Below, one piece after another: positions 7,555-64,000 of a DNA stretch of 64,000 nt. A model generated the notes under the pieces. The model searched no databases, was not told the origin of the DNA, and worked only from the letters and a program-made list of their open reading frames with translations. Source of the DNA: Hysterangium stoloniferum (lineage: Eukaryota > Basidiomycota > Agaricomycetes > Hysterangiales > Hysterangiaceae); NCBI GenBank assembly GCA_015178975.1, contig WHVD01000079.1, forward strand, positions 332,462 to 396,461, given 5' to 3'. Numbering within the stretch: the stretch's first letter is position 1; the number at the start of each line of letters is the position of its first letter. A program made the translations under genes and the position numbers.

Positions 7555-8117
7555 TGTTACGACCCGTTCCCGGATGTTTCAATATCCGACTTCCGATCTC
7601 CCACTTTCGATATCCGATATCCGACTACGGAACATCATAGTTACCGTATCATCCATGTTCTTCGTTTGTTCCGCATTTGGTAATTTGTCCGTTGACAAGT
7701 ATTCACTCGTTTGTTGTTGTATTCCCGTCTCGGAATATTGTCTTCCTAATATGTCTTATTGTATTTCCGTTTTAAGAACACTTCCGTTTCCGTCTTATTA
7801 TGGTCTCAGTTTGTAGTACAATAACGAGTAGACTTATATTAGTTTCCGCGAATTTGTACTTTACTTTAGATCTGATATCGACTTAGTTTCTTATTCCTCC
7901 TCCCATCTTTCTGTACGCTCGATATTCGGAACTCTTCGGAACTCTGAATATCCATATCTTCCGTCGTTAGTTCACTTCCGAAATTAAGGACATTGAGCGT
8001 TTGCGTAGAGGCGCAGCACATAAGCTGAAGCCAACGTCCTGACCCTATCCACGAGTTTCCGACTTCCCGGTGACTTCCCGATAGTTCCGGAATAAGTTCC
8101 CGACACGGCACTTAACA
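7555..8117 (+). repeat. Solo LTR, family B (563 bp)
   Basis: It starts TGTTACGACCCGTTCCC and ends GACACGGCACTTAACA, with perfect target duplications GTTTG (7550-7554 and 8118-8122). It is the reverse complement of the gypsy-B LTRs at 56674 and 63622. TATATT at 7835-7840 is followed by AGATCTGATAT at 7868-7878, the self-primer segment. The shared core motif is at 8011-8033. Confidence 0.9.
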
Positions 8118-22969: not shown

Positions 22970-25900
22970 TTAAAGGGTTTCAGTTTGAGTCACGGTCTCT
23001 GTAAAATTGATATATTCTTGAAAAGAGAGTCGATTGAAGGTTAAAGCAGAGATTCTCCTGGGGGCAAAGGGGTGTTGGCTATGGAATTTATCCACTAATT
23101 TTTTGGAGTTTCCAAGATTGTCAGCAGGTTCCCATGTGCATTCTTCTTGAGGGTACCCTTTCCATTTCACCAGGTATTGTAGTTTTCCCCTTGCCAATCT
23201 GCTATCTTTGATATATTCAACCTCCCATTCAGGAGTATCTCCTTTTACAACTGGAGGAGGCCTAACTGGAGGTATCCTCCCTTGAATTGTGTCCTCATGG
23301 AAAGGCCTGAGCTTGGCTACATTGAAGACTGGATGGATCTTCATGGAAGAAGGCAGTTTCAACTCATAGGCATTTGGACCAATAACTTTGGTGATTTCAA
23401 AGGGTCCATATCGTTTATCTTCTAGTTTTTTAGATGGCCTGTCTGTCTGAATGTCTCTGCCTTCTAACCATACTTTATCTCCTAGCTTATAGATGTCTGC
23501 CTCTTTTCTAGACTGGTCATAGTACCTAGCCATATCATCAGCAGCCCTATGGAGTGCAGCTTCTGCTTCTTTCCTTGCCTCCTGCATGTCTTTAATAAAC
23601 TGCTCCACTGATTTTATTTGGCTACTTCTGAAAGGCTCAGTCCCCAATCTAGGATGTCTACCATTCTTCGAAATAAAAGGTGTCTGCCTGCCTAGTAGAT
23701 GCTTGAACTCTGTTGTTATGGCAGAATTCTGCTAAAGACAACCATTCTGCCCAATCATCCTGTCTGTGATTCACAAAGAGTCTAAGGTATTGTTCTACCT
23801 CCTGATTTACTCTTTCTGTCTGACCATCTGTCTGAGGGTGATAGGCTGTAGAAGCTGCAACTTTGATCCCTAATATTGAATTCAGCTCTCTTGTGAATTT
23901 TGAGACAAACTGGGGTCCTCTGTCACTGATGATCTGTGAAGGGAGACCATGGAGTTTCCATACATTGTCCCTATAAAGCCTAGCAATGCCTTCTGAAGTG
24001 ATCTGGTCTGTAGTGGGTATGACATGAATCATTTTACTAAGTCTATCCACTACTACCATGATGGTGTTGTATCCTTGGCTTTCTGGAAGTCCAGTAATCA
24101 GATCCACAGTGATAATTTCCCAAATGTCCTTAGGAATCTGGGTTGGTACAAGCTTTCCAATAGGACTGGCAGGATATGTCTTAGTTCTATTGCACCTATC
24201 ACATCCTTTGGTATAAGATGCAACAAATCTGGAGATTCCTGGCCACCAGTAATTCCTGGAGACCAATTCTAAGGTTTTCCATCTGCCTGGATGGCCACTG
24301 GTATGAGCATCATGATGCAGTTCAACAATCTGCCTTCTAAGTTCCATATCTTTTGGCACATAAACTTTCCCTTTGAAGAGAATGAGACCCTGTTCCTCTG
24401 ACCACTCTGTGCCTTCAATTCTTTTACTTCCTGATTTTTTCAGTTCTTCTACTGCCTTGACTACAACTTCTTCCATATCCTTGGCCTCTCTGATTCTCTT
24501 CAGCAGATCTGTCTCCTGTCCTACTAATATAGCATGACCCTGTTTAAGAGCTTGGATCCTGAAATAAGAAGGTTTGAGAAGGGTAATATCTTCATTATCC
24601 CTCTCTCCTTTCCCATGATCAGGTCTTCTGGATAGAGCATCTGGTTTCAGGGAACTTTTACCAGGCCTATGATGTAAGGTGAAGTCAAATCTGGACAAAA
24701 ACAGGGACCATCTAGCCTGCCTCCTATTAAGTTTTTTGGCAGACATAAAGTATTCCAGATTTTTGTGGTCTGTCCAGATTTGAAAGGTATGACTGCTCCC
24801 TTCAAGATAGTGCCTCCATTCATCCAGAGCTCTAATGATAGCCAGCATTTCTTTGTCATGGATTTCATAATTTCTTTCCACTTCATTCAGACTCTTAGAT
24901 AAAAAGGCTACAGGGTGCCACTTTCCATCTGGTCCTTCCTGAGACAAGACAGCACCTGTTGCAAAGTCAGAACTGTCTGCCTCTAACTTGTAAGGTTTGC
25001 TGTCATCAGGAAAGACAAGAATTGGAGATGAAGTGACCTTGTCCTTCAGGCCTTGAAAGGCTGCCTTTTCTTCAATAGTCCACTTCCATGCTGTATCTTT
25101 CCTTGTTAGATTATGCAGGGGTCTGGCTATTTTTGCAAAGTCCTGGATAAACCTTCTGTAGAAGTTGACAAAGCCTAGGAAAGATTGAATCTCCTTGACT
25201 GTGGTAGGTTCTGGCCATTTGGAGACACCCTCTATCTTCACTGGGTCCATGGAGATGCAGCCATGTGAAACGATAAGTCCAAGATATTCAATCTTTTCCT
25301 TTTCAAATTCACATTTTTCTGCTTTCAAATAAAGCTTGTTTTTCTCCAATATTTCAAAGACCCTTTTGACCACTTCTCTATGTTGTTCCAAAGTGTTTGT
25401 GAAGATAAGAATATCATCCATATAGACAATGACAACTTGACCATCAATCAACTCTATGAACAAGTCATTCATCATGGTCTGAAATGTAGCAGGACTATTG
25501 GTAAGACCAAAGAACATGACCAATGGTTCAAACAGTCCTCTATTGGTTCTGAAAGCTGCTTTCCATTCATCTCCTTCTTTTATTCTGACATTGTTATAGC
25601 CCCATCTGACATCCAACTTAGTGAAGTATTTGGCTCCCTTCAGCTTGCTGATAATGTCAGAGATGAGTGGTAGAGGATAGGAGTTTTTGATTGTGATGTC
25701 ATTTAGCTTTCTGTAATCCTAGACCAATCTTAAAGAGCCATCCTTCTTTTTTATAAAGAACACTGGAGATGCCATAGGAGACTTGGAGGGTTGGATCCTT
25801 CCACTTTTTAAGGTTCTCTCCTAAGAATTCATCCAGTTCCTTCTGCTCATGTGGTGCTAAAGGATAGAGCTTGCTTCTAAAAGGTTCTGAGCCAGGCTTC

Positions 25901-26795
25901 AATTCAATGGCATGATCCCAGGGTTTCTTATCTGGCAATCTGTCAAAAGACTCTTTGGAGAATATTCCCTTGAACTGGTGATAACATTTTGGAACTAGTT
26001 CCTCAAAGGTTTTCTTCTGGTCTTGTTTATGAGACTCTTCTGCCAACTTCTGTGATACAGTAGAAGTAGCATTGATATTAGACTGAGGATAGATAGTTGT
26101 AGTCCAGATCCTGTCACTGTCTTCAACTCCTGACTGATCATCTTCCTCATCATCTTCATCTGCATCCTCAATGAGACTAGGAAGTTTCCTTCTAGACTCT
26201 GCTGCCTTCCTTTGTCTACTTTTCTTAATTCTCCTAATCTGGAGAGAACATTCAGGTGGACACCTAGTCAAATCTACTTGTCCAGTTCTCCAATTGATTT
26301 CAGGGTTATGGTGAAAGAGCCAGGTATGTCCAATAATTGCAGATTTGTCTCCAAGGTCACATACAGCAAAGAGTGCCTTTTCTGTATGATCTTTGAAGAT
26401 CATTGTCAATTCTACTTCTTCATGGATAGAGCCTCCTTGGTTTAATGTCCCATCAACATTGTAAACAGGGATAGGTCTGGGGAGTTTAATTGTATTGAGA
26501 TTGTGGTATTCCACAAATCTTTTGTCCAAAAAGGAACCAGTAGCTCCACTGTCTAATAGTCAGTTACTGACATTCTAACTCCTGTGTCCAAAGACCTGAG
26601 AACAATAGGAAGCTGGGTAGAGGTTTTGGGGTTGAGACTTCTGATATAAATTCTTTGAGGGGGATCTTCTGGAGAGGGTGTGGCTGACATGGGTTCTGAA
26701 TTAGTGTCTAGAGTTTCTGATTGAATTGAGATAATTTCTTTGGGATCCTCTAATACACTAAATCTATTACTCCATTGGGACATGTCCTTCACCAA
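22970..26795 (-). pseudogene. Gypsy-E pol: protease, RT, RNase H, integrase, chromodomain
   Basis: Read on the minus strand: a linker, protease LLDSGATGSF (about 26545), RT with VIVYMDDILIF (about 25415-25447), RNase H (EADSSDFATGAVLS, DKEMLAIIRALDEWRHYLEG, TDHKNLEYF), integrase with an H-H-C-C zinc finger (HTSGHPG...CDRC) and D-D-E residues in TVDLITG, ISDRGPQF and TDGQTERVN, then a chromodomain (LQYLVKWKGY...CTWEPADNL). Lesions: a frame break just before the DSG motif near 26555, a further break near 25800, a TAG in RT at 25719-25721 where Gln is usual, and a duplicated 4-mer (TGCCTGCC at 23685-23692) that shifts the frame near the integrase C-terminus. Confidence 0.93.
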
Positions 26796-50217: not shown

Positions 50218-50343
50218 ATGCATATAACGTTGAATAACGGCCAAAAAAATTTTTTCCTAAGATTTCCCCCCCTCATGGGGGTTATAACACGTTCATTGCG
50301 TTTATATGGCGATTCGAGAGCCAACACAGAGCACACCACCGTC

Positions 50344-51675
50344 ATGCCATTACAGCTGCCCACAGAACTTGTCCTAGAGATAGTGTCGCATCTCGTTGGT
50401 ATTTATGGCGATATCTACCACGACATGGAAGCGCAGATCAAACGAGTCTTTTTGACGATTGCTCGGGTATGTCGGGGATGGCATCGAGCCATTGTGACAT
50501 ATCTCTATGTATCCACGACACCCCGCAATATTCGTACTTGCAGGCTCCTTCAGCGGACACTTGAAAACGATAGAGAGCTGGCCTCCGTTGTTAAGTCGCT
50601 CACGCTCCCGGCAGACGATAAGTTGCATTTCCGCACCATGATCTCTACAAAGCTCACCGCACGCCGCGGGAGAGCCATTCGCCAACTCGTTGCTCAATGT
50701 CCAAACCTGACGCATCTCGCGATACCTATGGAGAGCGCATTGTGGTGGGACGCCAGCACTATTCAAAAAAACTTCCCATCCATGGCGTATGTCACTAATG
50801 TCACCCACCTCGAGATATCTGGTTCGAAAGGGCCGTGGGTATACCCCCCTCCGAAACGCATCATCGGGTTTCAACATCTGGCCGCCTGGCTCGGTCAAAT
50901 TCCCCTTCTTCCGAATCTAGAGTGTTTAACTCTTACAGAAATAGTCATGTCCCGCACAGAAGGAGCGATCGTATGGCCCGAAATGCCTCGGTTGCGCCAT
51001 ATGAGGTTGAATGATCCATTTTGGACGACTACATTTGACGACAGGCTGTTTTTACACGTTCAAAGATCCCTTAACTCACTGCACATTTTCGATACTTATC
51101 AACCATATCTTGAGCGATCCTCTACTTTTCGACCATTCAGCGACCAATCATACACCGCTACACGACTTCTACCGTATTTAGAGGCGTTCACCCTCGTATA
51201 CAATTTAAATGGAACGGGGATCCCTTCTATGAACTGGTTAATGACAGACGTAGGCCAGCACGCCTCGCTACGATGGCTACGCATCAGCGGATTCCTCGTC
51301 CGAGAGAAGCTTTTGACATACTCCCGTTCGCCATTGGAAACACTAGTGCTCGTTGTACGTGGTACAGTAGATATGACATCTATAGACAATATGTGGGGAG
51401 ATATTACCCAATACCGTCAAAAATGTGACTATAGAGGTTGAGCCTCCAAAGATTTTGTCAGAGGAAGCGTGCCTGGAGCACATGATTGTTGCTTCACGTC
51501 TCAAAGCGGAGCGATTGGGGATTCACCTGCGTGTAGATCGTAGACCCAGTAGGTTTTCGTTCCTCTTTTTTAGCAAGATTATCTTGTAATTATTTCCACA
51601 GAACCTGACGTGAAGCTGGAACTAACGAAACTGAGTTGGGCAACAAAACATCTAAGCCTCTTGACTAAGGGTTAA
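50344..51675 (+). pseudogene. F-box protein gene with one frameshift near the 3' end
   Basis: The ATG at 50344 (GTCATGCC) is preferred over upstream starts because the F-box-like block follows at once (MPLQLPTELVLEIVSHLV, then ARVCRGWHRAIVTYLYV). The main frame runs to a TGA at 51439-51441, 365 codons. Leucine-rich stretches recur (LLPNLECLTLTEIV, RLLPYLEAFTLVYNL, ASLRWLRISGFLV). Directly after the stop, another frame continues naturally (NVTIEVEPPKILSEEACLEH, ASRLKAERLGIHLRVDRRP). It then reads through a GTAGGT...CCACAG intron (about 51550-51602) into LELTKLSWATKHL and a stop near 51675. A 1-nt change around 51395-51415 is the simplest explanation; an assembly error is also possible. Confidence 0.65.
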
Positions 51676-53416: not shown

Positions 53417-53565
53417 GGTTATGGGCCCTGACCAAAGCTGTTAATTAACCATTGAAATTGACCGACCAAACAAACTGACCCCGACATTGACCAACTGAAC
53501 CTGACCCTGACCAACTAAACTTGACCTCGACCAACTGAACCCCGACTCAACTGACTAAAACAAAT

Positions 53566-56500
53566 ATGGTGTCACACCAACCAGCACTATTTATGTTGCA
53601 ACCTGAGGATCGCCTCGATGGACACAATTGGTTCGCATGGCACGACACTATCTGGTCTGCAGCGGGTGCATGAGGCGTCCGAGGGTATATGGATGGAACT
53701 ATAAAGAAACCTTCCCAACTTGCCCCCAATACTACCCCTGTATCAACGACTTACTGGGGATCACACAATCCTTCACCCGAGGAATGAGAACAGCGCGACG
53801 CATATGCAAAGGCAATGATTGATCTGAACGTCAAGAATCCTATCGGCAACGGCATTCAACCATCCGATACTGCGAGTGAGGCCTGGTCCGCCCTGAAAGC
53901 GATACACAGTGCAACCTCCGATATAGGTTTGCTTAATGCCGATAACGATTTGCGTACAATCAAGCATATTGACGGCGCGGACATCATATCCCATTTCACA
54001 CGACTACGCGAAGGATGGGCAAAGGTCAACGCGCAAGGGGGAAAAATGGACGATTCTACTTTCTGCACAATTGTGATTGCGTCGATGCCTAAGGAGTGGG
54101 ATCTAGTAATTGGAACTCTTTTCTCACTGAAGACCTCCAAAGAATTAATATCAAACCTCACCTTATATGACAAAACAATCGCACGAAACAGGAAACCCAC
54201 ACCCCAAACTTCACAAGCTCTCGCGACTACTAAATCTAATCGGTCTAGTGATGTTTGCTCCAACCCCAACTGTAAACGCATAGGACACACGATTGAGAAG
54301 TGTTTCAAAGTTGGAGGGGGAATGGAAGGTCAGTTTCCTGATTGGTGGAGAAAGAAGGGGACCGGTACTGGTGGAAGTCAAGCCGCGCAGCAACAAAAAC
54401 CATCCGACGGTGTACCTACCAAATCAACAGCTAACGTGTCGACAGCTAACGTGGCAGTTGTGCCCTCTACTCCCTTCACACCTGGATCTGGAGAATTCTG
54501 CACCCTTATGATGCAGGTAGATCCAACGGTATCCACCAACAGCACTATTGTCACCTATGCTGACTCCGCAGCGAGTGATCATTTTTTTATTGATATAAAC
54601 GATTTTCAAACTTACAAGAATTATAATGGGAAGGATGGGACTATGGCTAACAATGATAGCACTTTTTCAATCTGCGGAAAGGGGACAGTTAGCAAGCGTT
54701 GCATATACGATGGACACGTTGTCAATCTCATATTTCAGGACGCACTTCATTGCCCGACCTTATCCCACAACCTCGTGTCCATCGGGAAACTTGACAACAG
54801 TGGATGTTATGCAATTTTTGGGGGCGGCGGCGTTACCTTTATCAACCCAGATGGTCGTCCATTTATGTATGGGAGGGGAGAAGGAACAATGTACAAGATC
54901 GACATCTTTCCCCCAGCTGGCCCCCTCCCAGATAGCGTGCAATTATCACCGGAGATGGCAATACACCCAGCGGCCGTAGTCAAGATGACCGCACATGCTT
55001 TTGCTGCCAAATCCCACGACCGACCAACCGATATAGATACCTGGCATCGACGCCTTGGTCACATTCGGTACGATACTGTACAACAAATGGCCAATCACAA
55101 CTTCGTTTGTGGCATGCAGGTAACCACCATGACACCCCAACCAGGGACATGTGAGGGATGTATAATGGGGAAGCATACAAGCCGCCCATTCTACATCAAT
55201 GATGAGCGTGAAACAGCAATCGGGGAACGGACCTATGTTGACTTGTGGGGACCGTCCCGAGTCCAGTCCATCGGCGGGAGAAGTTACATGATGCCGTGTG
55301 TCGACGGGTACAGTGGTCACCCGGAAGTTTTCTTCTTGTCCAGTAAAGAAGCAAAAGGAACCTTAGCCGCATTGAAGCAATATACAGCGCTCACTGAATG
55401 TCAGACAGGGATGAAGGTGTGCAGGATACGTACCGATGAAGGCACCGAATTCTTCAATTCATTGTGGACCACTTACCTCAACGAACAAGGGATTATACAC
55501 GAAACCACCACTGCGTACTCGTCTTCGTCCAACGGCGTTGTCGAGCGATGTCATCGCACCATCATCGAGCGAGTGCGTGTTTGCCTGTATGAGAATAAGT
55601 TACCTTCTGCGCTGTGGTGCGAAATCGCAGCAGCGATCGTATACGTGATGGATTTTATCCCTACTACCAGAAACCCCAACTCGACTCCTTTTGAGTTGTG
55701 GCATGGGAAGAAACCCGATATTTCTCACCTGCATCCCCTCGGTTGTGTAGCTTATGCTAAAATCCCCGTCGAAACAGGAGGAGGGCTTAGTAAACTGGAT
55801 CCACGGTCCATAAAAGGGGTGCATATTGGATATTTCGGACGTGACGCTTATAGAATTTACGACCCAGAGACGCGTCGTATTTTTCGCTCGCGTGATGTCA
55901 TCTTCGAGGAGGGTCGCAGTTACAAGACACTGATGGAGATATCGGGCGATGAGGAAATACAGAATCTTGACCACGTTACACTCACCACACCGGTTAACGA
56001 GAACACAGACAAACTGAGCAGCGGTTTGGCACCAGTACAAGACCACACTTCCGCAATTGCCCCAACCAATATCTCAATCCCAACCGTCACTGAGTCTACC
56101 AGCATGGAATCTGCACCACGTCGTTCCACGCGCGTATCTGTTCCAACACAGGCACTTAAGGAATCTCTCACCTCAGAGATGAACATACAGCAAGCCCAGT
56201 TGGCAGGGGAAGCGTGGGCTGACGACAGAGTACATAGTGCGTTCCATACTGATGCCATGACAGTTCCAGACCCAACAAACATGTGGCTTCCCAAAACATA
56301 CAGCGAGGCGATGACGCGTCCTGACATATGGGCCGGCCCTATCAACAAAGAGTTAGACGTCATGAGAAAACACGGGGTGTGGACAGTTATGGACTGTCCT
56401 GCTAATGCTAGATTGGTACAAACGCGTTGGACCTTTGCACACAAATACAACAGTAACGGCGAACTTATTGCCCGCAAGGCAAGACTCGTCGCTAAAGGTT

Positions 56501-56673
56501 TTACCCAAATACCCGGTGTCGATTTTTTCGAAACATACGCCTCTGTCGTTCGGTATGAGTCACTGCAAATGAATTTGGCCATCGCAGCTGCCAAAAACAT
56601 GGAGTCATGGCAGATTGACTATGTCTCGGCATACCTCAATTCAGTTTCCACAAGCTGTTACATACATCGAACT
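53566..56673 (+). pseudogene. Ty1/copia Gag-Pol, two nonsense codons, cut off by gypsy-B
   Basis: From ATG 53566 the frame reads the gag start (LFMLQPEDRLDGHNWFAWHD), hits TGA at 53671-53673 and 53785-53787, then stays open for 963 codons. Domains in order: gag with a CCHC knuckle (CSNPNCKRIGHTIEKC), protease (YADSAASDHFF), integrase zinc finger (WHRRLGHIRYD...CEGCIMGKH) and catalytic region (TYVDLWGP, IRTDEGTEFFN, SNGVVERCHRT), then the RT N-terminus (QTRWTFAHKYN, KARLVAKGFTQIPGVDFF, IDYVSAYLN). The integrase-before-RT order is that of copia. Gypsy-B enters at 56674, before the RT catalytic YxDD, so the rest lies beyond the window. The second TGA is in a position where Trp is usual. Confidence 0.9.
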
Positions 56674-57258
56674 TGTTAAGTGCCGTGTCGGGAACTTATT
56701 CCGGAACTATCGGGAAGTCACCGGGAAGTCAGGAACAACTAGATAGGGTCAGGACGTCGGCTTCAGCTTATGTGCTGCGCCTCTATGCAAACGCTCAATG
56801 TCCTTAATTTCGGAGGTGAGACTTATGATGGGAGTTACGGATATTCAGAGTTCCAAAGAGTTCCGAATATCAAGCGTACAGAAAGATGGGAGAAGGAATA
56901 AGAAACTAAGTCGTTATCAGATCTAAGGTAAAGTACAAATTCGCGGAAACTAATATAAGTCTGCTCGTTATTGTACTACAAACTAAGACCATAATAAGAT
57001 GGAAACGGAAGTGTTCTTAAAACGGAAATACAATAAGACATATTAGGAAGGCAATATTCCGTAACAGGAATATAACAAACAAACGAGTGAATACTTGTCA
57101 ACGGACAAATTACCAAATGCGGAACAAGGGAAGAATGTGGATGATATGGTAACTATGATGTTCCGTAGTCGGAGGTCAAAGTCGGAAGTCGGGGATCAGA
57201 AGTCGGGAGTGGGAGACCGGAAGTCGGATATTGAAACATCCGGGAACGGGTCGTAACA
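56674..57258 (-). repeat. Gypsy-B 3' LTR (585 bp)
   Basis: The ends in plus terms are TGTTAAGTGCCGTGTCGGG and GGGAACGGGTCGTAACA. The shared core motif is at about 56761-56780. The same family occurs as a solo LTR at 7555-8117. Confidence 0.95.
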
Positions 57259-57385
57259 GTACCCCCCTGTTAGGCCGAAATCCCATAGAGGCGATTAGGT
57301 ACTAAGTGTTTGAAGCAACGGCTGATTGTTATGTGTCGTGAAATTTACGCAAATATGAGGTGAGAGTTTCGGCTGTTATTCTGAG

Positions 57386-57393
57386 TATAAAAA
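57386..57393 (+). promoter_or_regulatory. TATA box of the antisense gene in gypsy-B
   Basis: TATAAAAA on the plus strand, 49 nt before the ATG at 57442, with a pyrimidine-rich stretch (TTTTTGTTTCTTTAACC) between. It lies outside the LTR, so the antisense gene appears to have its own promoter. Confidence 0.55.
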
Positions 57394-57441
57394 CCTCCAA
57401 ATATCCGAATTAACGTTTTTGTTTCTTTAACCACAACTTGT

Positions 57442-58584
57442 ATGTCGATTCGTCGGCCGTTGTTCATCACTACCCCGGAAGACTCAGATACCGAAATATC
57501 CGTACTTCAAAAGATGTCAAAGGTCGCAGAACTTCAACAAAAACGCCAGAAAATGGAGGAGTTGAAGTGACGACAAGAGGAGGGGGAAAGAGCGTTGATG
57601 CAGGAGTTGAAGGATGCGGAGGAGGCGGAAAAGCGGGAATTGGAGCAGGTGAAGGCGGAAAAAGAAGCATGGATACGGAAAACGGCGGAGGTGCAGAAAA
57701 AGAAAGAGGAGGTGGAAAGATTACAGCGGGAGTCGCAGGTGGCGGAAAAACTGAAGGAGATAAGGGAAGGAAAGGTAAGTTTGACCCATACATTCCGTGA
57801 TTCCAACCGATAACTATTGATGCAGCGGAAAGCCGTGGAGGTGGACGTAGAGGGCGAAGCTGGACCTTCAAGTCCTAAAGTGAGTGCATCTGTAACGGAA
57901 ACGGTAGTTGTTTAACTTCCGAAACAGAAACCAAAGGTCAAAGCTCCGGAACGAATGGAAGTCGTCCACGAAACTCCGTGTTATCGATGTTCCATACGGA
58001 ACATGACGTGTTGGAAACAGAAGGTAAAATGGGGCGGAACTTGCTATCCCTGCGCGGTTCTCAAACTTCCGTGCACCCTTGCCTCAAAAAGGGTTCCGAA
58101 AGGTGAGAAGACTCCGAAAACTAACGACGCGGGAAGTTCAGGAGCGGCCAAAGCTATGGAAACTGAAACGTCGAAAATGGATAGTACAGGCATTGAGCTT
58201 CTCAAAGAAACTGTCGACGCGTTGGTTTTTATCGGGACGGAAGTCATGAAAATGCGGGATACAATGGATCGCCATAATGATATCCAGGAGAAAGGTTTCC
58301 GTTCATTGGTCCGGAATTTCCGGAGGCAAAACGATTTCCTGGAGAAGATAATGGTTAGCATTGGTGTAATCGCAGTATCCGAGGGGTTTTCCGATAGGGC
58401 ACGGGAAAAAACCAATGATCCATTGGCGGAATGTGTTGAAAAGAGGTGGGTGTCGGGAAAAGGGCCGGAAGAATCAGAGAGTGAAGATGAAGAGGTACAG
58501 GATATGGTGGAAAGTGCGGAAATTGCTGAAGAGCCGGAGGTTGGGACGGAAGGTGGATTTGGGGTGTCAGAGACTTTGAGATAG
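57442..58584 (+). pseudogene. Antisense accessory gene: coiled coil plus Zn2Cys6-like cluster, two introns, one TGA
   Basis: This plus-strand gene lies antisense between the gypsy-B polypurine tract and the end of pol. From ATG 57442, exon 1 (to 57774) encodes MSIRRPLFITTPEDSDTEIS and then a long Lys/Glu-rich coiled coil. Intron 1 is 57775-57825 (GTAAGT...TGCAG); exon 2 is 57826-57879; intron 2 is 57880-57927 (GTGAGT...ACAG). Both introns are phase 0, and both contain in-frame stops that splicing removes. Exon 3 (57928-58584) gives cysteines in the order C-x2-C-x6-C-x10-C-x2-C-x6-C (CYRC...CWKQ...CYPC...LPC; residues about 147-178), a second helical region (ETVDALVFIGTEVMKMRDTM), and an acidic tail (EESESEDEEVQDMVESAEIA). 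Spliced length would be 347 residues. TGA at 57568-57570 (codon 43) interrupts it and would be Arg if CGA. The spacing is that of fungal GAL4-type binuclear zinc clusters; DNA binding is inferred, not shown. Confidence 0.7.
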
Positions 58585-58674
58585 ATTTAATAATATTTTT
58601 TTTTTTGACTTGCAAAACCTAAAACGAGTGTGAAAACGGAAGTGTCGGGAACTGAGCAGAAAAGAACAGAAAGA
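58585..58674. other. Convergent 3' junction of antisense gene and pol
   Basis: About 90 bp with a run of 12 T (about 58597-58608) separates the two converging stop codons. It is a natural place for both transcripts to end; no signal is certain. Confidence 0.4.
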
Positions 58675-61600
58675 TTAGAGTGATGATAAAGGTCCGGGTT
58701 TGCCTGGATAAGCCGTGTGGAAGTCAGTAACAATTTCCATAGCATGTCCAAGTTCTGTGGCCAATATCCATGAAGTTTCCTCGTCGGTACCTTCATAACC
58801 TGCCCATTTAACTAAATAGAGCAATTTACAAGTACGTCGGCGATTGTCGATTTTAGAATCCAAAATTTCAGAAACTTCGAATTCGGGTTCTCCATCAATG
58901 ATGACCGGAGGGGACGGAGGTTGAATACGTTCTGGGAATGAGTTAGGAACACAAGGTTCTAACATGGAAATGTGGAAAACGGGGTGGACTGCTCGCATAC
59001 TGTCGGGAAGACGGAGAGTCCATGAAAGTGAACCGGCTTGTGCTATAATTTCAAAAGGTCCTAAGAATTTCTCAGCGAGTTTTTTAGAAGGTCGGGTAGT
59101 ACGGAAGAATTGAGCTTTTACAAAAACCTGATCACCAATTTTAAAATTAGGAGGCGGGATCCTGTTTTTGTCCGTGGAACATTGATAATATTCCTGTGCG
59201 GAAGAAATAGCTTTCCGAAGTTCTTGATGTAATTCGTCGAGATCGGTAATAAATTCTTGAGCACGGACAGAAGCCAAATCTCGTTCGGAATGTACTGTGA
59301 GATTCGGATTATAGCCTTTATTGGCGAAGAAGGGAGATATGCCGGTGGTTGCATTCGGAGAGTTATTGTAGGCAAATTCCGCGATCGGAAGAAGGGATTT
59401 CCAGTTGTCCTGTTGGTAATTACAATAGATGCGGAGATATTGTTCCAGTGTTTGATTAACGCGTTCCGTTTGTCCATCACCTTCCGGGTGATATCCCGAG
59501 GTGAAGTGTAGTTTCATGTCGAGGGCTTTTCCGAGGGCCTGGAAGAAATGGGAGACGAACTTGGAGCCTCGATCGGAAGTTACATGAGATGGAACTCCGT
59601 GTTTGGAAAATACGTGAATAATGAAAAGTTCTGCTAATTGTAAGGACGTGATTGTATCATGAGTGGGTATGAAAATGCCTTGTTTCGAGAATCGGTCCAC
59701 AACAACTAGAATGGATGTAAAGCCTTCGGAAGTCGGGAGTTGTTCGATAAAATCCATGGAAATTGAATTCCAAGGTTTTTCTGGTATCGGGAGTTGCTTG
59801 AGAAGGCCGTACGGCTTATGCCTCTGGGTTTTGGAGCGTAAGCAGGTGGTGCATGACTTACAGAACTGAGTTACGAAATCTCGGAGGTTGGGCCAAGTAT
59901 ATTCTCTACGGATTAAACCAAGAGTATTGTTGATGCCGTAATGTCCGGAGATTGGATGATCGTGTTTATACTGAAGTACACGGAGTCGGAGATTGTCGGA
60001 ATCTGGAACATAGATACGTCCATCGAGACAGATAAAACCTTGAGAGTCTTGTGACCATCGGGGTTGGTTGGGATTGTCGGGAACATCTAAATGTGGCTTG
60101 AGGGCCGGGTCGGAAGTGAGTGTGGAAAGGATATCTTGATGTAATTGCTCAATGTCCATAATCATGACGCTACGCATAATTGGATAGTAAAGGGAAGTTG
60201 CTCGGATAGATGCGGAAAGTTGTTGCGTTGTAAAAACCGGTTTCAAGTTATGCGGATTAATAACAGCGTAGTTACTTTCCCCCTCTTTAGGATAGACGTC
60301 CCATCATCGAGTCATGGCATCTGGCTTTCCACCAAGACGTCCGGGTCGGAAACGGATAATCATGTTGAAAGCGGAAAGGAATTCAGACCAACGGGCCTGC
60401 CGGCGGGTTAAAAGTTTAGTGGTAGAAAAATATTCGAGATTTTTGTGATCGGTAACAACGTCAACGGGAGTTGCAGAACCTTCGAGATAATGGCGCCAAT
60501 GTTTGAAAGCTTCAAAAATAGCCAAAAGTTCCTTATCATGAACGTCGTAATTGAGTTCGGATACTGAAAGTGTCCGAGAAAGAAATGCGACCGGATGAAT
60601 TTCACCATCAGAATCTTGAATGGAAAGGATCGTGGCAATTGCATAATCGGAAGCATCGGTTTCCACAATAATCGGAACATCAGGTTTCCAATGGGAAAGG
60701 ATCGGGGCAGAAGTGAAAGCATTTTTTAAAGTCTGGAAGGCAGAGCGGCATTTATCGTCAAAAACCCATGGTTGAGTTTTACGGGTAAGACGAGTGAGCG
60801 GTACTGTAATATCCGAGTAGTTCCGAATAAAATGACGGTAAAAGTTGGCGAAACCTAAAAATGATTGAATGTCCTTGACCTTCCGTGGTTCGGGCCAGTC
60901 ACGGACAACCTGAACCTTGGTTTCATCCATACGGAGACCATCAGGGCCGATGATGAAACCTAAGTATTCAATAGAATCCATGTCGAAATAACATTTTTTA
61001 CCATTTGCGAAAAGACCGTTTTTACGGAGTCTTCAGAAGACTTCATGGACCTGTTCATCGTGAAGAGCGGGATCCTCGGAAAATACCAAAATGTCGTCCA
61101 AATAGACTATAACACATACGTCAAGCATGTCGGAAAATATATCATTAACAAAACGTTGAAAAGTGGAAGGGGCGTTGGTAAGGCCGAATGGCATAACCAA
61201 CCATTCAAAGGATCCATAGCGAGTCCAAAAAGCAGTTTTCCATTCGTCACCCTCGGCAATTCGGACCAAATGATAGGCGTGTTTGAGATCTATTTTGGTG
61301 TAAATCCGAGCTTTCCGTAGGGCATCGAGTAAATTGGTAACGAGTGGCAGTGGATACTTATCTTTCCGTGTGATGGAATTTAATCCTCTGAAATCAACAC
61401 AGAGTCGAAGGGAGCCATCCTTTTTACGGACGAAAAGGACAGGTGCTCCATACGGAGACTTTGAGGGACGGATAAAACCTATTGACAAATGTTCATCCAG
61501 GAACTCCCGAATAGACGAAAGTTCCGATTGGGATAATGGGTAAATAGGTCCTAGCGGAGGGTTTGAACCGGGCTCAATATCAATTTTTAAGTCGTAAGGC

Positions 61601-62366
61601 CTATGTGGTGCAAGCCTGTCAGCTTTTTGCTTACTGAAAATGTCCGCGAAATCATGGTATTTTTCGGGAACTCCTTCCAGGTCGGCTTTTAGCTCAGATA
61701 ATTCTGGAGTCGCAAAACGACCAGATGCTTCATCAACTTTTAAGCTGATCGAAAAACATTGCGAACCATCCAGTTTACTCGCCCTAACAAATGCCGAAGC
61801 ATTGATGAGAGAGATTTTTGGAGGCTCAGAAGTTTCGGTAGAAGCCGGAGGTGCCATTGATGCCGAAAAGGCATTGGCCGGAAAAGACGCTGCAGGAGGA
61901 ACGGAAGTGTGGGGAGTCCGGAAAGTAATACTGCCCAATACCCAGTCAATCAACGGATTATATCGGGTGAGCCAGTTGTATCCAAGAACTACCGAACAGC
62001 TAGAGTCCAACTGTGTTACGAAAAAGGTAACCGTCTGGGATGTTCCACAAGGGAACCGGATAGACATGTCGCAGGCTTGAGTAATTGCCGTATTGCTAGT
62101 GCCGTCAAACAAACGTAAGGAAATTGCGGGAACAGAATGGAGTTTCAGATTATGTTTCATGGCAAAGGTGGTATCTACAAAACAGTGTGTGGAGCCGGAA
62201 TCTATTAGAGCTCGGAACACTAAATTTCCAAGAAAGTCAGAGACGAGTTTTACAAATAATGAATCGGGATTAGAGAGAGCGGACGCGTTGAGGCGGATAA
62301 CCTCGGAAACATGGAGAGAGTCAACGCAACCCTCTGTCCGTGCAGATTCCGGAGGGTTGCTTACTC
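58675..62366 (-). pseudogene. Gypsy-B pol: protease, RT, RNase H, integrase, chromodomain; two TGA
   Basis: One frame throughout. Protease ALIDSGSTHCFV (about 62205), RT with VIVYLDDILVF (about 61085-61115), RNase H (VETDASDYAIATILS, DKELLAIFEAFKHWRHYLEG, TDHKNLEYF), integrase zinc finger (HPISGHYG...CKSCTTC), D-D-E residues in SMDFIEQL, TSDRGSKF and GDGQTERVN, and a C-terminal chromodomain (CKLLYLVKWAGYEGTDEETS). The only breaks are TGA at 61033-61035, between HEVF and RLRKNGLF, and TGA at 60304-60306, after PDAMTR. Both positions would be arginine if the codon were CGA. The chromodomain may direct integration to marked chromatin, as in other chromoviruses. Confidence 0.95.
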
Positions 62367-63587
62367 TTTTTTCGACTCCGTGGCGGGTTTTTCCTTAGAC
62401 GTTGTAGTCATAGTGGAAGTTACCGTGCGAGCCTTGGAAGAGCTAGATTTAACGGTACAGTTGGAAACCTTGTGTCCGCCTTTTCCGCAGAAAAGGCAGA
62501 GGTCGTTGTCCATATGCCGTTGTTTCTCCTTCGGGGTGAGTTTACCGTCGGTACCCAACAAATGGGAAATGTCGGGTTTGTCGGAAGTTGACTGTTTCTC
62601 CTTGTTGGATTTCTTGTCTTTCTTCCGGTCGGAATTTGATTTGCCAGTATTAGTGCCAGAGCCGGTATTATTGCCTGAGTTGTTGCCGGAAGACTTGCTA
62701 GTCGACGCCTTATTGTTCTGAGAACGTTCCGTTGGGTTCTCTCGAGAAACCTCGGCTTTTCGTTCCCAATAACGGGCATCAGATGTTTGAGCTTTCATCC
62801 GCATGAGTTGGAGAGTTTTTGGCTTTCCATCTTTGCAGATTTCGTCTTTAAGGCGTGACGGAAGTCCCATATAGAAATGGTGCCTGAGGGCGGAATCGTC
62901 CCATCCACATCGTGCAGCGAGGGTATTGAACTTGACGAGATAATCGGAAACTCGTTGATTGTCCTTCATCTTGAGTGTCATTAGTTCATTTTCTGCTTCG
63001 CCGGATTGATTGGAAGGTCCGAAATTAGTTTCCAGTTCTTCCACGAAAGCATCCCAGTCGTCGAGCCATACGGGTGTCTCGTCGGATATTCCGGATAGTC
63101 CGGGTTCGAACCAATCCTGAGCGGTATCCTTGAGATAAGAGAGCGCAAAATTGACTTTTCGACTGTCGGATTTAAAAGCATTGGGTCGATCACGAAAACT
63201 GAAATGGCATTGGAGAAGGAAATTCTTCAATTTTTTCGGATCCTTGCCGGTAAAAGGTTCGGGTTCTTTGACTCCGGTGCGGGATGGATTCTTTACTATC
63301 CTCAGCGGATTTCAAATAGTCAGCGAATTTCACAATGGAGTTGATAAACAATATTTCAGTCGGTTCATCGGAAGATTTCTTTTCGATGTCTCCGGCTGAT
63401 CTTCTGCTTCATTGTCGGAAGTGTGGGGAACATTGGGATCCTTTGTTACCTCGGTAACCTCCTCGGTAACTTCTTCGACTGAAGCTGATGTTGTCGGCTG
63501 AATTGGGGTTTCAGGTTGAGTGGTGTAAAGTTGCAACGGGGATTGAAGTTGGGATGGTCCTTCGGCAGCTTTGCGTTTGGGACCCAT
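62361..63587 (-). pseudogene. gag: Gypsy-B Gag with two frame changes
   Basis: ATG 63587 starts MGPKRKAAEGPSQLQSPLQL. The frame is lost around 63350, where ILFINSIVKFADYLKSAED continues in another frame, and is regained around 63295 with EPEPFTGKDPKKLKNFLLQC. From there it is open to TAA at 62361-62363. It has the gag capsid block (FALSYLKDTAQDWFEPGL, YLVKFNTLAARCGWDDSALR), a low-complexity Ser/Asn/Lys region, and a CCHC knuckle CLFCGKGGHKVSNC. The two frame changes nearly cancel, so only about 20 residues are affected; sequencing error is possible. The stop lies just after a run of six A. Confidence 0.85.
62367..62372 (-). promoter_or_regulatory. Candidate -1 frameshift run (A6) between gag and pol of gypsy-B
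   Basis: The minus strand reads TCG AAA AAA GAG TAA in the gag frame. The pol frame is exactly -1 and is open across this point, up to the protease. The heptamer is not fully canonical (G AAA AAA), so this is weaker than the gypsy-E site. Confidence 0.4.
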
Positions 63588-63608
63588 GATGAGCGAGTCG
63601 CAGAGTTG

Positions 63609-63618
63609 AGATCTGATA
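63609..63618 (-). promoter_or_regulatory. Gypsy-B self-primer binding site
   Basis: On the minus strand TATCAGATCT starts 3 nt after the LTR end. It is complementary to AGATCTGATA inside the LTR; the solo copy at 7868-7878 extends the match to 11 nt. The gag ATG follows only about 20 nt later. Confidence 0.75.
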
Positions 63619-63621
63619 TAC

Positions 63622-64000
63622 TGTTAAGTGCCGTGTCGGGAACTTATTCCGGAACTATCGGGAAGTCACCGGGAAGTCAGGAACAACTAGATAGGGTCAG
63701 GACGTCGGCTTCAGCTTATGTGCTGCGCCTCTACGCAAACGCTCAATGTCCTTAATTTCGGAGGTGAGACTTATGATGGGAGTTACGGATATTCAGAGTT
63801 CCGAAGAGTTCCGAATATCGAGCGTACAGAAAGACGGGAGAAGGAATAAGAAACTAAGTCGTTATCAGATCTAAGGTAAAGTACAAATTCGCGGAAACTA
63901 ATATAAGTCTGCTCGTTATTGTACTACAAACTAAGACCATAATAAGACGGAAACGGAAGTGTTCTTAAAACGGAAATACAATAAGACATATTAGGAAGGC
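63622..64000 (-). repeat. Gypsy-B 5' LTR (partial)
   Basis: The first 379 bp match the 3' LTR at all but five positions, every one a CpG here and TpG or CpA in the other LTR. The self-primer donor AGATCTGATA (minus; plus 63863-63872) lies 33 nt downstream of a TATATTAG box. Confidence 0.95.

What the first reader, a model, noticed from the sequence alone, without database searches (positions are those of the whole stretch)
57386..58584. Spliced antisense Zn2Cys6-like gene inside a gypsy retrotransposon
Gypsy-B carries, opposite to gag-pol and between pol and its 3' LTR, a gene model with a TATA box, an ATG, two phase-0 mini-introns (51 and 48 nt, each removing an in-frame stop), a coiled coil, six cysteines with exact binuclear zinc-cluster spacing, and an acidic tail. 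A 347-codon model with only one stop (a possible CGA-to-TGA) suggests it was kept under selection. Antisense ORFs are known in some plant gypsy lineages, but a spliced regulator-like protein of this kind in a fungal element is, as far as I know, not described. It could be a transcription factor acting on the LTRs or a silencing antagonist (inference).
Basis: partly seen in the sequence, partly recalled or inferred. Interest (0 to 1): 0.9.

Follow-up and report, generated by a model that had tools for sequence, protein, structure and literature searches.

The report
Spliced antisense gene in fungal retrotransposon
A jumping gene of a forest fungus carries, on the strand opposite its own replication genes, a real spliced gene for a zinc-cluster-like, probably nuclear protein that selection has preserved in many copies and whose inner parts are swapped between copies, which looks like a self-made regulator of the element.

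Summary
The gene model is real. In the host (Hysterangium stoloniferum, from a named protein and contig length) the antisense gene lies between pol and the 3' LTR of a roughly 7.5-kb chromodomain Ty3/gypsy family. Of 100 copies examined, 98 keep the ATG, 97 and 98 keep GT..AG at introns 1 and 2, and 83 pass a frame filter; 38 are complete. dN/dS is 0.24 in frame and 1.0-1.3 in four of five other frames. Intron lengths drift freely, exon lengths change mostly by threes. The cysteines match zinc-cluster spacing in 78 of 83 copies, but Pfam Zn_clus stays far below its cut-off, so: zinc-cluster-like. A 48-54% identical relative exists in the same genome.

Further: three blocks of the gene are mosaic. 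Of 171 pairs with flanks at least 97% identical, 71 differ by over 20% in a block. The LTR carries a variable array of 7-bp TCGG repeats.

Best reading: a self-encoded nuclear regulator of the LTR; RNA, target and sign are untested. Antisense genes at this place are known in plants and in fungal Boty (brtn); this is a new variant.

The parts
56674..57258 (-). 3' LTR of the gypsy element (585 bp, TGTTA..TAACA)
   Evidence: Genome LTR matches begin at query 15-18 and end at 602-603 (capped list); second copy at 63622-64000, 98.7% over 379 bp
57167..57228 (+). U3 tandem array of 7-bp units, most ending in TCGG; 24-122 nt long among copies
   Evidence: TRF: period 7 (57% matches) and period 21 (78% matches); of 78 copies matching the bounding pattern, 54 lie on a 24+7n ladder and 24 are one nt short of it
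57259..57441 (+). Leader between LTR and ATG; begins with the polypurine-tract-like run of the sense strand
   Evidence: Sequence; 95.6% mean column conservation in 97 copies
57386..57391 (+). TATA box of the antisense gene
   Evidence: TATAAA in 97 of 100 copies; 57386-57395 99.6% conserved against 95.6% for the leader
57442..57774 (+). Exon 1: conserved N-terminus MSIRxPLFITTPEDSD and charged helical/coiled-coil-like stretch
57568..57570 (+). In-frame stop of this copy (intact copies exist elsewhere)
   Evidence: 13 of 100 copies have it, this one included
57775..57825 (+). Intron 1, 51 nt, phase 0
   Evidence: GT..AG in 97/100 copies; 50-55 nt; no YTNAY branch-point-like site in range in 58 of 97 copies
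57826..57879 (+). Exon 2; part of a basic, NLS-like stretch (K/RK...SPK)
   Evidence: 54 nt in 95 of 100 copies; NLS reading is recalled
57880..57927 (+). Intron 2, 48 nt, phase 0
   Evidence: GT..AG in 98/100 copies; YTNAY site 12-13 nt from the 3' site in 95 of 97 copies
57928..58584 (+). Exon 3: NLS end (KPKVK), zinc-cluster-like motif, linker, long predicted helix, acidic tail, stop
57979..58074 (+). Zinc-cluster-like motif, six cysteines
   Evidence: each Cys kept in 80-83 of 83 in-frame copies; pattern in 78 of 83
57674..57774 (+). Variable block V1 (limits approximate, set by eye)
   Evidence: two main alleles 32% diverged on average; dS 1.36, dN/dS 0.24
58050..58270 (+). Variable block V2: end of zinc motif, linker, start of helix
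   Evidence: two main alleles 26% diverged; dS 0.56, dN/dS 0.46
58366..58460 (+). Variable block V3
   Evidence: two main alleles 28% diverged; dS 2.3, dN/dS 0.07
58675..60246 (-). Integrase part of pol with chromodomain; convergent with the antisense gene, 90 bp apart
   Evidence: Pfam rve, Integrase_H2C2, Chromo
60304..60981 (-). RNase H part of pol
   Evidence: Pfam RT_RNaseH
61033..62220 (-). Protease and reverse transcriptase part of pol
   Evidence: Pfam RVP_2, RVT_1
62745..63587 (-). gag (first 281 codons), two in-frame stops in this copy
   Evidence: match C532:395206-396048; ATG seen
63622..64000 (-). 5' LTR, cut by the contig end

Best explanation
Shown: the element carries an intron-bearing protein gene opposite to gag-pol, kept by purifying selection. 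Inferred: it is transcribed by Pol II from its own TATA promoter just inside the 3' LTR, spliced, and made into a nuclear, DNA-binding, coiled-coil protein. The introns survive retrotransposition because they are antisense to the genomic RNA and so are not spliced from it. The protein binds the TCGG repeats in U3, which would lie upstream of the gag-pol promoter in the 5' LTR and lie about 160-220 bp upstream of its own TATA box at the 3' LTR, and through its acidic tail keeps the element transcribed or unsilenced. Old alleles of its coiled-coil, DNA-binding/linker and C-terminal blocks are exchanged between elements, most simply by template switching, which may change partner or target specificity.
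For: Gene reality. dN/dS 0.24 in frame; other frames 1.26, 1.00, 1.03, 0.31, 1.26 (the 0.31 frame averages 5.3 stops per copy against 0.87). Between main alleles dN/dS 0.07-0.46 at dS 0.56-2.3. Divergent relative with the same start, zinc motif (5 of 6 Cys), helix and LTR junction, 48-54% identity. Zinc spacing in 78/83 copies and 0/200,000 shuffles. NLS-like GKRKA..SPKKxKVK in 14 of 14 proteins printed. U3 7-bp array of variable length. CGG+CCG in the LTR 28 against 15.4+-2.7 in 50 shuffles; CGGAA/TTCCG in six gypsy coding pieces 55 against 27.6+-4.4 in codon shuffles, 0 of 500 reaching it; copia control 3 against 5.7. Mosaic blocks.
Against: No RNA data. Zn_clus below cut-off, no zinc-cluster chain found in PDB with the profiles, and the basic residues lie in the Cys3-Cys4 loop, not the Cys2-Cys3 loop as in Gal4. 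CGGAA excess is not clearly CGG-specific: TGGAA is also in excess (33 against 23.9+-3.4, 3 of 500), and against an order-2 Markov model CGGAA is 87 against 51. The leader has no CGG excess (4 against 4.2). CpGs in CGG/CCG decay like other CpGs (window copy as reference: LTR 29% against 24%, gene 32% against 30%, integrase end 34% against 36%), so no sign of protection in resident copies. CGGAA positions and density are not well kept between alleles. Array length shows no clear link to block alleles in the young group, by eye. 17 of 100 copies fail the frame filter and 44 of the other 83 have internal stops.
Confidence: 0.42

Rival explanations
1. Self-limiting factor: the same nuclear protein represses the element's own LTR or particles, as HBZ does for HTLV-1 and p22 for Ty1; swapped blocks let new elements escape repression by resident copies.
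For: Antisense, spliced, 3'-located gene as in HBZ (PMC10186651 passages); exchange by recombination of the gene that sets copy-number control is known in Ty1 (PMC7055915 abstract). 71 of 171 pairs with flanks at least 97% identical differ by over 20% in one block.
Against: The acidic tail and CGG array fit an activator as well. The family is large: 150 matches of the gene were scored out of 798 candidates.
Confidence: 0.22
2. Nuclear accessory protein without a role in transcription, for example for nuclear import of the preintegration complex, chromatin tethering or chaperoning.
For: NLS-like stretch; a nuclear antisense protein of unknown role exists in maize Grande (PMC7264820 passages). 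Zinc-cluster membership is unproven.
Against: The integrase already has a chromodomain. It would not explain the TCGG array, though the array need not be linked to the gene.
Confidence: 0.22
3. The antisense RNA, not the protein, is what matters (double-stranded RNA or interference control of gag-pol), with the frame incidental.
For: Antisense transcripts are discussed as regulators of retroelements (PMC7264820 passages). The gene converges on pol with 90 bp between.
Against: Codon-level selection, in-frame exon indels and conserved splice sites.
Confidence: 0.05
4. Captured host gene or chance open frame without function.
For: No homologue outside this genome was found in 5.8 billion proteins.
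Against: A gene match lies within 1.6 kb of 72 of 83 integrase match rows, plus 2 more seen only at DNA level; conserved over large synonymous divergence. A single-copy host gene was not specifically sought, and the match lists are capped.
Confidence: 0.03

Closest known systems
Boty-like gypsy elements of Botrytis cinerea with antisense gene brtn (Zhao et al. 2011)
   Same: Fungal gypsy element with an extra antisense gene, listed in PMC7264820 among elements with the gene between pol and 3' LTR; chromodomain pol (PMC4227169 passage)
   Different: Ascomycete; I saw only titles and mentions, so brtn's protein, introns and selection could not be compared
Plant antisense aORFs (Grande gene23, RIRE2, Retand, PvRetro13)
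   Same: Same place and strand; described as present in most copies; Grande's has its own promoter and a nuclear protein (PMC7264820 passages and section 5, PMC11963269 passages)
   Different: No TRP28 (PF04195) match here; here two introns inside the coding sequence and a zinc-cluster-like motif
HTLV-1 HBZ and related antisense proteins
   Same: Antisense gene with spliced RNA at the 3' end, nuclear regulator of transcription-factor type (PMC10186651 passages)
   Different: bZIP, not zinc; retrovirus; HBZ RNA starts in the 3' LTR, this gene's TATA box lies in the internal region
VANC anti-silencing proteins of Arabidopsis VANDAL transposons
   Same: Element-encoded protein with conserved and variable regions; candidate target is a short motif in a tandem array of variable length in the element's own noncoding DNA (PMC5735166 passages)
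   Different: Different element class and protein; binding and loss of methylation shown there, only inferred here; CpG decay gave no support
Ty1 copy-number control (self-encoded, from gag) evolving by recombination
   Same: Recombination swaps the module that carries self-regulation (PMC7055915 abstract)
   Different: Sense, derived from gag, acts on particles

Membership tests
Zn2Cys6 (Gal4-type) binuclear cluster | C-X2-C-X6-C-X5-12-C-X2-C-X6-8-C | tested here: met
   78 of 83 copies, 0 of 200,000 shuffles. Spacing rule recalled.
Zn2Cys6 (Gal4-type) binuclear cluster | Profile match above curated cut-off | tested here: not met
   PF00172 8.6-8.8 bits, cut-off 21; 13 of 20 members match at E up to 10, best E 0.88
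Zn2Cys6 (Gal4-type) binuclear cluster | Basic residues between Cys2 and Cys3 | tested here: not met
   SIRNMT here; basic residues lie in WKQKVKW after Cys3, against RLKKLK in Gal4
Zn2Cys6 (Gal4-type) binuclear cluster | Profile-profile similarity with all six cysteines aligned | tested here: inconclusive
Zn2Cys6 (Gal4-type) binuclear cluster | Linker and coiled-coil dimer helix after the cluster | tested here: inconclusive
   Helix 86-151 of exon 3 in a single-sequence model with mean pLDDT 47
Zn2Cys6 (Gal4-type) binuclear cluster | Binds zinc and CGG triplets | not testable with these tools
   Only CGG enrichment seen
Antisense aORF of gypsy elements (aORF-3R) | Between pol and 3' LTR, antisense, in most copies | tested here: met
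   next to 72 of 83 integrase match rows of a capped list
Antisense aORF of gypsy elements (aORF-3R) | Transcribed from its own promoter | not testable with these tools
   TATA box 97/100 is sequence evidence only
Plant Retand antisense protein | TRP28 domain PF04195 | tested here: not met
   Not among the families listed in Pfam scans (E up to 10, exon 3 of 20 copies, E up to 1, 6 full proteins)
Boty brtn | Sequence homology to brtn | not tested
   Paper not held
Chromodomain Ty3/gypsy (chromovirus) | PR-RT-RH-IN order with chromodomain, LTRs | tested here: met
   (Chromo 27.1 bits, cut-off 25.1)

The most novel reading that the evidence does not exclude
The element runs a VANC-like or activator system of its own: a zinc-cluster-like protein from an intron-bearing antisense gene recognises an expandable TCGG array in the LTR, and old specificity modules are shuffled between elements by template switching, giving families with nearly identical bodies but different regulatory identities, comparable to swapped phage immunity regions.
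Probability: 0.25. Interest if true: 0.87.

Novelty: new variant of a known kind. Interest (0 to 1): 0.68.

Why it matters
Antisense genes in LTR retrotransposons have been noted for years with their function unknown (PMC7264820). Here one shows codon-level selection, two conserved introns that fit only a gene read antisense to the genomic RNA, a DNA-binding-like motif, a candidate target array in the same element, and module swapping. That makes the question of what such genes do directly testable, with natural allele swaps as ready-made experiments.

Tried and rejected
Protection of CGG sites from methylation: not supported in resident copies. With seven reference copies and four regions, CGG/CCG and other CpGs are deaminated to similar degrees, with differences in both directions.

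Conserved density of CGGAA with turnover between alleles: not supported; counts fall in older families.

Co-variation of U3 array length with block alleles: only an old/young split is seen by eye (24 nt in 18 of 23 copies with V3 class 3; 37-122 nt in the copies with V3 class 1 or 2), confounded with descent.

Positive selection in V2: dN/dS 0.46, not above 1.

Structure: single-sequence AlphaFold2 model of exon 3 too poor to use (mean pLDDT 47), so no fold search was run.

IMG/VR hit L110: I read it as a chance match of a short stretch in an unrelated contig. No Rfam match in 56600-64000; no plasmid match. Weak Pfam/NCBIfam matches of full proteins (for example TolA best E 0.0016, MutS2 0.00011, Borrelia_P83 0.0095) I read as composition matches of the charged helix.

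Full report
Where it is. The window is G000:C532:332462-396461 of a 111-Mb genome. The one protein found with the exon-3 profile is named Hysterangium stoloniferum BU17DRAFT_62310 and lies on a contig of 1,501,424 bases. It matches contig C2 at 100%, and C2 has that same length. So the host is this basidiomycete (lineage; its ectomycorrhizal life is recalled). The element is a chromodomain Ty3/gypsy element inserted in a copia-like element. It runs on the minus strand from a 5' LTR at 63622 (cut by the contig end at 64000) through gag, protease-RT, RNase H and integrase-chromodomain to a 3' LTR at 56674-57258. The LTRs differ at 5 of 379 compared bases, so the insertion is fairly recent. Two LTR pairs elsewhere (on C544 and C286) put the length near 7.5 kb. 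In this copy pol is split into three ORFs and gag has two stops.

The observation. I compared the window copy with 99 others: 39 from the DNA search and 60 chosen from the 150 matches of the protein search. TATAAA 97/100, ATG 98/100, intron 1 GT..AG 97/100, intron 2 GT..AG 98/100. Intron 1 varies from 50 to 55 nt; intron 2 is 47-49 nt in 98 copies, 12 and 51 in the other two. Exon lengths change 80 times in frame and 14 times out of frame, intron lengths 37 times by threes and 60 times not (5 copies left out; shared ancestry makes these counts dependent). 83 of 100 copies passed the frame filter; the other 17 were dropped from codon analyses. Of the 83, 39 have no internal stop and 38 are complete. 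The stop of this copy is present in 13 of 100 copies; intact copies exist.

Selection. Median pairwise dN/dS falls from 0.60 (4 pairs) and 0.48 (46 pairs) in the closest pairs to 0.21-0.26 for dS 0.2-1.5, as expected when resident copies decay but the replicating lineage is constrained. In 800 random pairs the true frame gives 0.24; the other frames give 1.26, 1.00, 1.03, 0.31 and 1.26. The 0.31 antisense frame is not a better candidate: it has 5.3 stops per copy on average, against 0.87. The nearby integrase end gives 0.31 in the 48 copies where it was compared, the antisense gene 0.24 in the same copies. The six cysteines are each kept in 80-83 of 83 copies.

Spread. The exon-3 protein search scored 150 of 798 candidates, and all 150 listed matches have 70-100% identity (capped). 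Of 83 integrase match rows, 72 have an antisense-gene match within 1.6 kb. Two of the other 11 (C286, C528) have it in the DNA search; nine are undecided because the lists are capped. A second branch with 48% (exon 3 and end of exon 2) and 54% (exon 1) identity keeps the same start, coiled region, zinc motif (5 of 6 cysteines), helix and LTR junction, with one stop. Outside this genome nothing was found in 5.8 billion proteins, PDB, plasmids or viral contigs (99-101, a chance match). How well fungi are covered by those collections is unknown to me.

The protein. N-terminal MSIRxPLFITTPEDSD, a highly charged helical stretch, a basic stretch GKRKA...SPKKxKVK that is joined across both introns, kept in 14 of 14 printed proteins, and resembles nuclear signals (recalled motif), the cysteine motif, a linker, a long helix and an acidic tail. 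The spacing is that of zinc clusters and did not arise in 200,000 shuffles. Yet Zn_clus reaches only 8.8 of 21 bits, hhalign gives 31%, and the basic residues sit in the next loop. I therefore do not file it as a Zn2Cys6 member; it may still work like one.

Mosaic blocks. Copies about 93% (LTR) to 98% (integrase) identical to the window's can be 25-35% different in V1, V2 or V3. L104 and L051 are 93-100% identical per 100-nt step from LTR to integrase, except 57974-58273, where identity drops to 0.71-0.85. Among 93 copies (7 dropped), 171 of 4278 pairs have all three flanks at 97% or more, and 71 of these have a block below 80%. Block classes occur in reassorted combinations, for example (7,4,2), (1,4,2), (1,4,1), (1,1,1). 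Between main alleles dS is 1.36 (V1), 0.56 (V2) and 2.3 (V3, saturated), against 0.07-0.09 in the adjacent integrase end, with dN/dS 0.24, 0.46 and 0.07. So old, constrained alleles have been moved into a young element, most simply by template switching (inferred); a donor was not found. gag shows a milder version: the window's gag is 86% identical to L108's while RT is 97%. RT is 89-97% over the 104 other scored matches and integrase 91-98%, both capped lists.

Candidate target. The U3 end next to the leader holds a 7-bp tandem array with most units ending in TCGG (weak by TRF, 57% matches at period 7, 78% at period 21). In the 78 of 100 copies that matched the bounding pattern its length ranges from 24 to 122: 54 lie exactly on a 24+7n ladder and 24 one nucleotide short of it. 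It lies about 160-220 bp upstream of the antisense TATA box. CGG+CCG are enriched in the LTR (28 against 15.4+-2.7) but not in the leader (4 against 4.2). CGGAA/TTCCG is the most over-represented 5-mer of the element (87 against 24 by an order-1 Markov model, against 51 by order 2; chosen after ranking all 5-mers). In six coding pieces (gag taken from L108) it exceeds protein- and codon-usage-preserving shuffles (55 against 27.6+-4.4, 0 of 500), unlike copia (3 against 5.7); TGGAA is also in excess, 33 against 23.9+-3.4. Against a direct protective role: CGG sites decay like other CpGs in resident copies, and CGGAA sites are not well kept between alleles.

Mechanism. Shown: gene, splice signals, selection, mosaicism, array. 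Inferred: transcription, splicing itself, nuclear site, DNA binding, target, sign. The introns argue for antisense expression, since a sense genomic RNA does not present them as introns and they would survive reverse transcription. I put 0.42 on an activating or anti-silencing regulator of the LTR, 0.22 on a self-limiting factor and 0.22 on a nuclear accessory protein.

Known kinds. [quoted passage not shown] PMC11963269, passages; brtn mentioned in PMC4227169 and PMC8365987, passages; the brtn paper itself not held). [quoted passage not shown] the word antisense does not occur in it. HBZ (PMC10186651, passages), VANC (PMC5735166, passages) and Ty1 copy-number control (PMC7055915, abstract) are functional parallels, not relatives. 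Searches, judged from their listings, showed no spliced zinc-cluster antisense gene in a fungal LTR element; most subscription papers are not in that library. Verdict: new variant of a known kind.

Noticed in passing
7555-8117: Another LTR of the same family (89% identical); no second LTR match lies near it in the window, so probably a solo LTR. It coincides with the CGGAA cluster at 7-9 kb.
   Followed up: partly
53500-56673: Copia-type gag-pol ORF (53815-56679) interrupted inside its reverse transcriptase by the gypsy LTR.
   Followed up: partly
62745-63587: The window copy's gag is only 86% identical to that of copy L108 though RT is 97% identical; gag too seems to be exchanged between lineages.
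   Followed up: partly
23042-26559: Another gypsy element (best RT segment 54%, integrase 45% and 36% identical to this one) in DNA with CpG observed/expected of 0.37 and no CGGAA in the 1-kb bins from 23 to 27 kb.
   Followed up: no
1-50000: CpG observed/expected rises from 0.29 in the first 10 kb to 0.94 at 40-50 kb, suggesting strong CpG decay in the left part.
   Followed up: no
L057 and L012 (LTR): U3 arrays of 122 nt (one copy, L057) and 86 nt (two copies, L012 the example), about 17 and 12 units.
   Followed up: partly
50218-51441: 407-codon ORF whose start resembles an F-box protein by eye; not tested.
   Followed up: no
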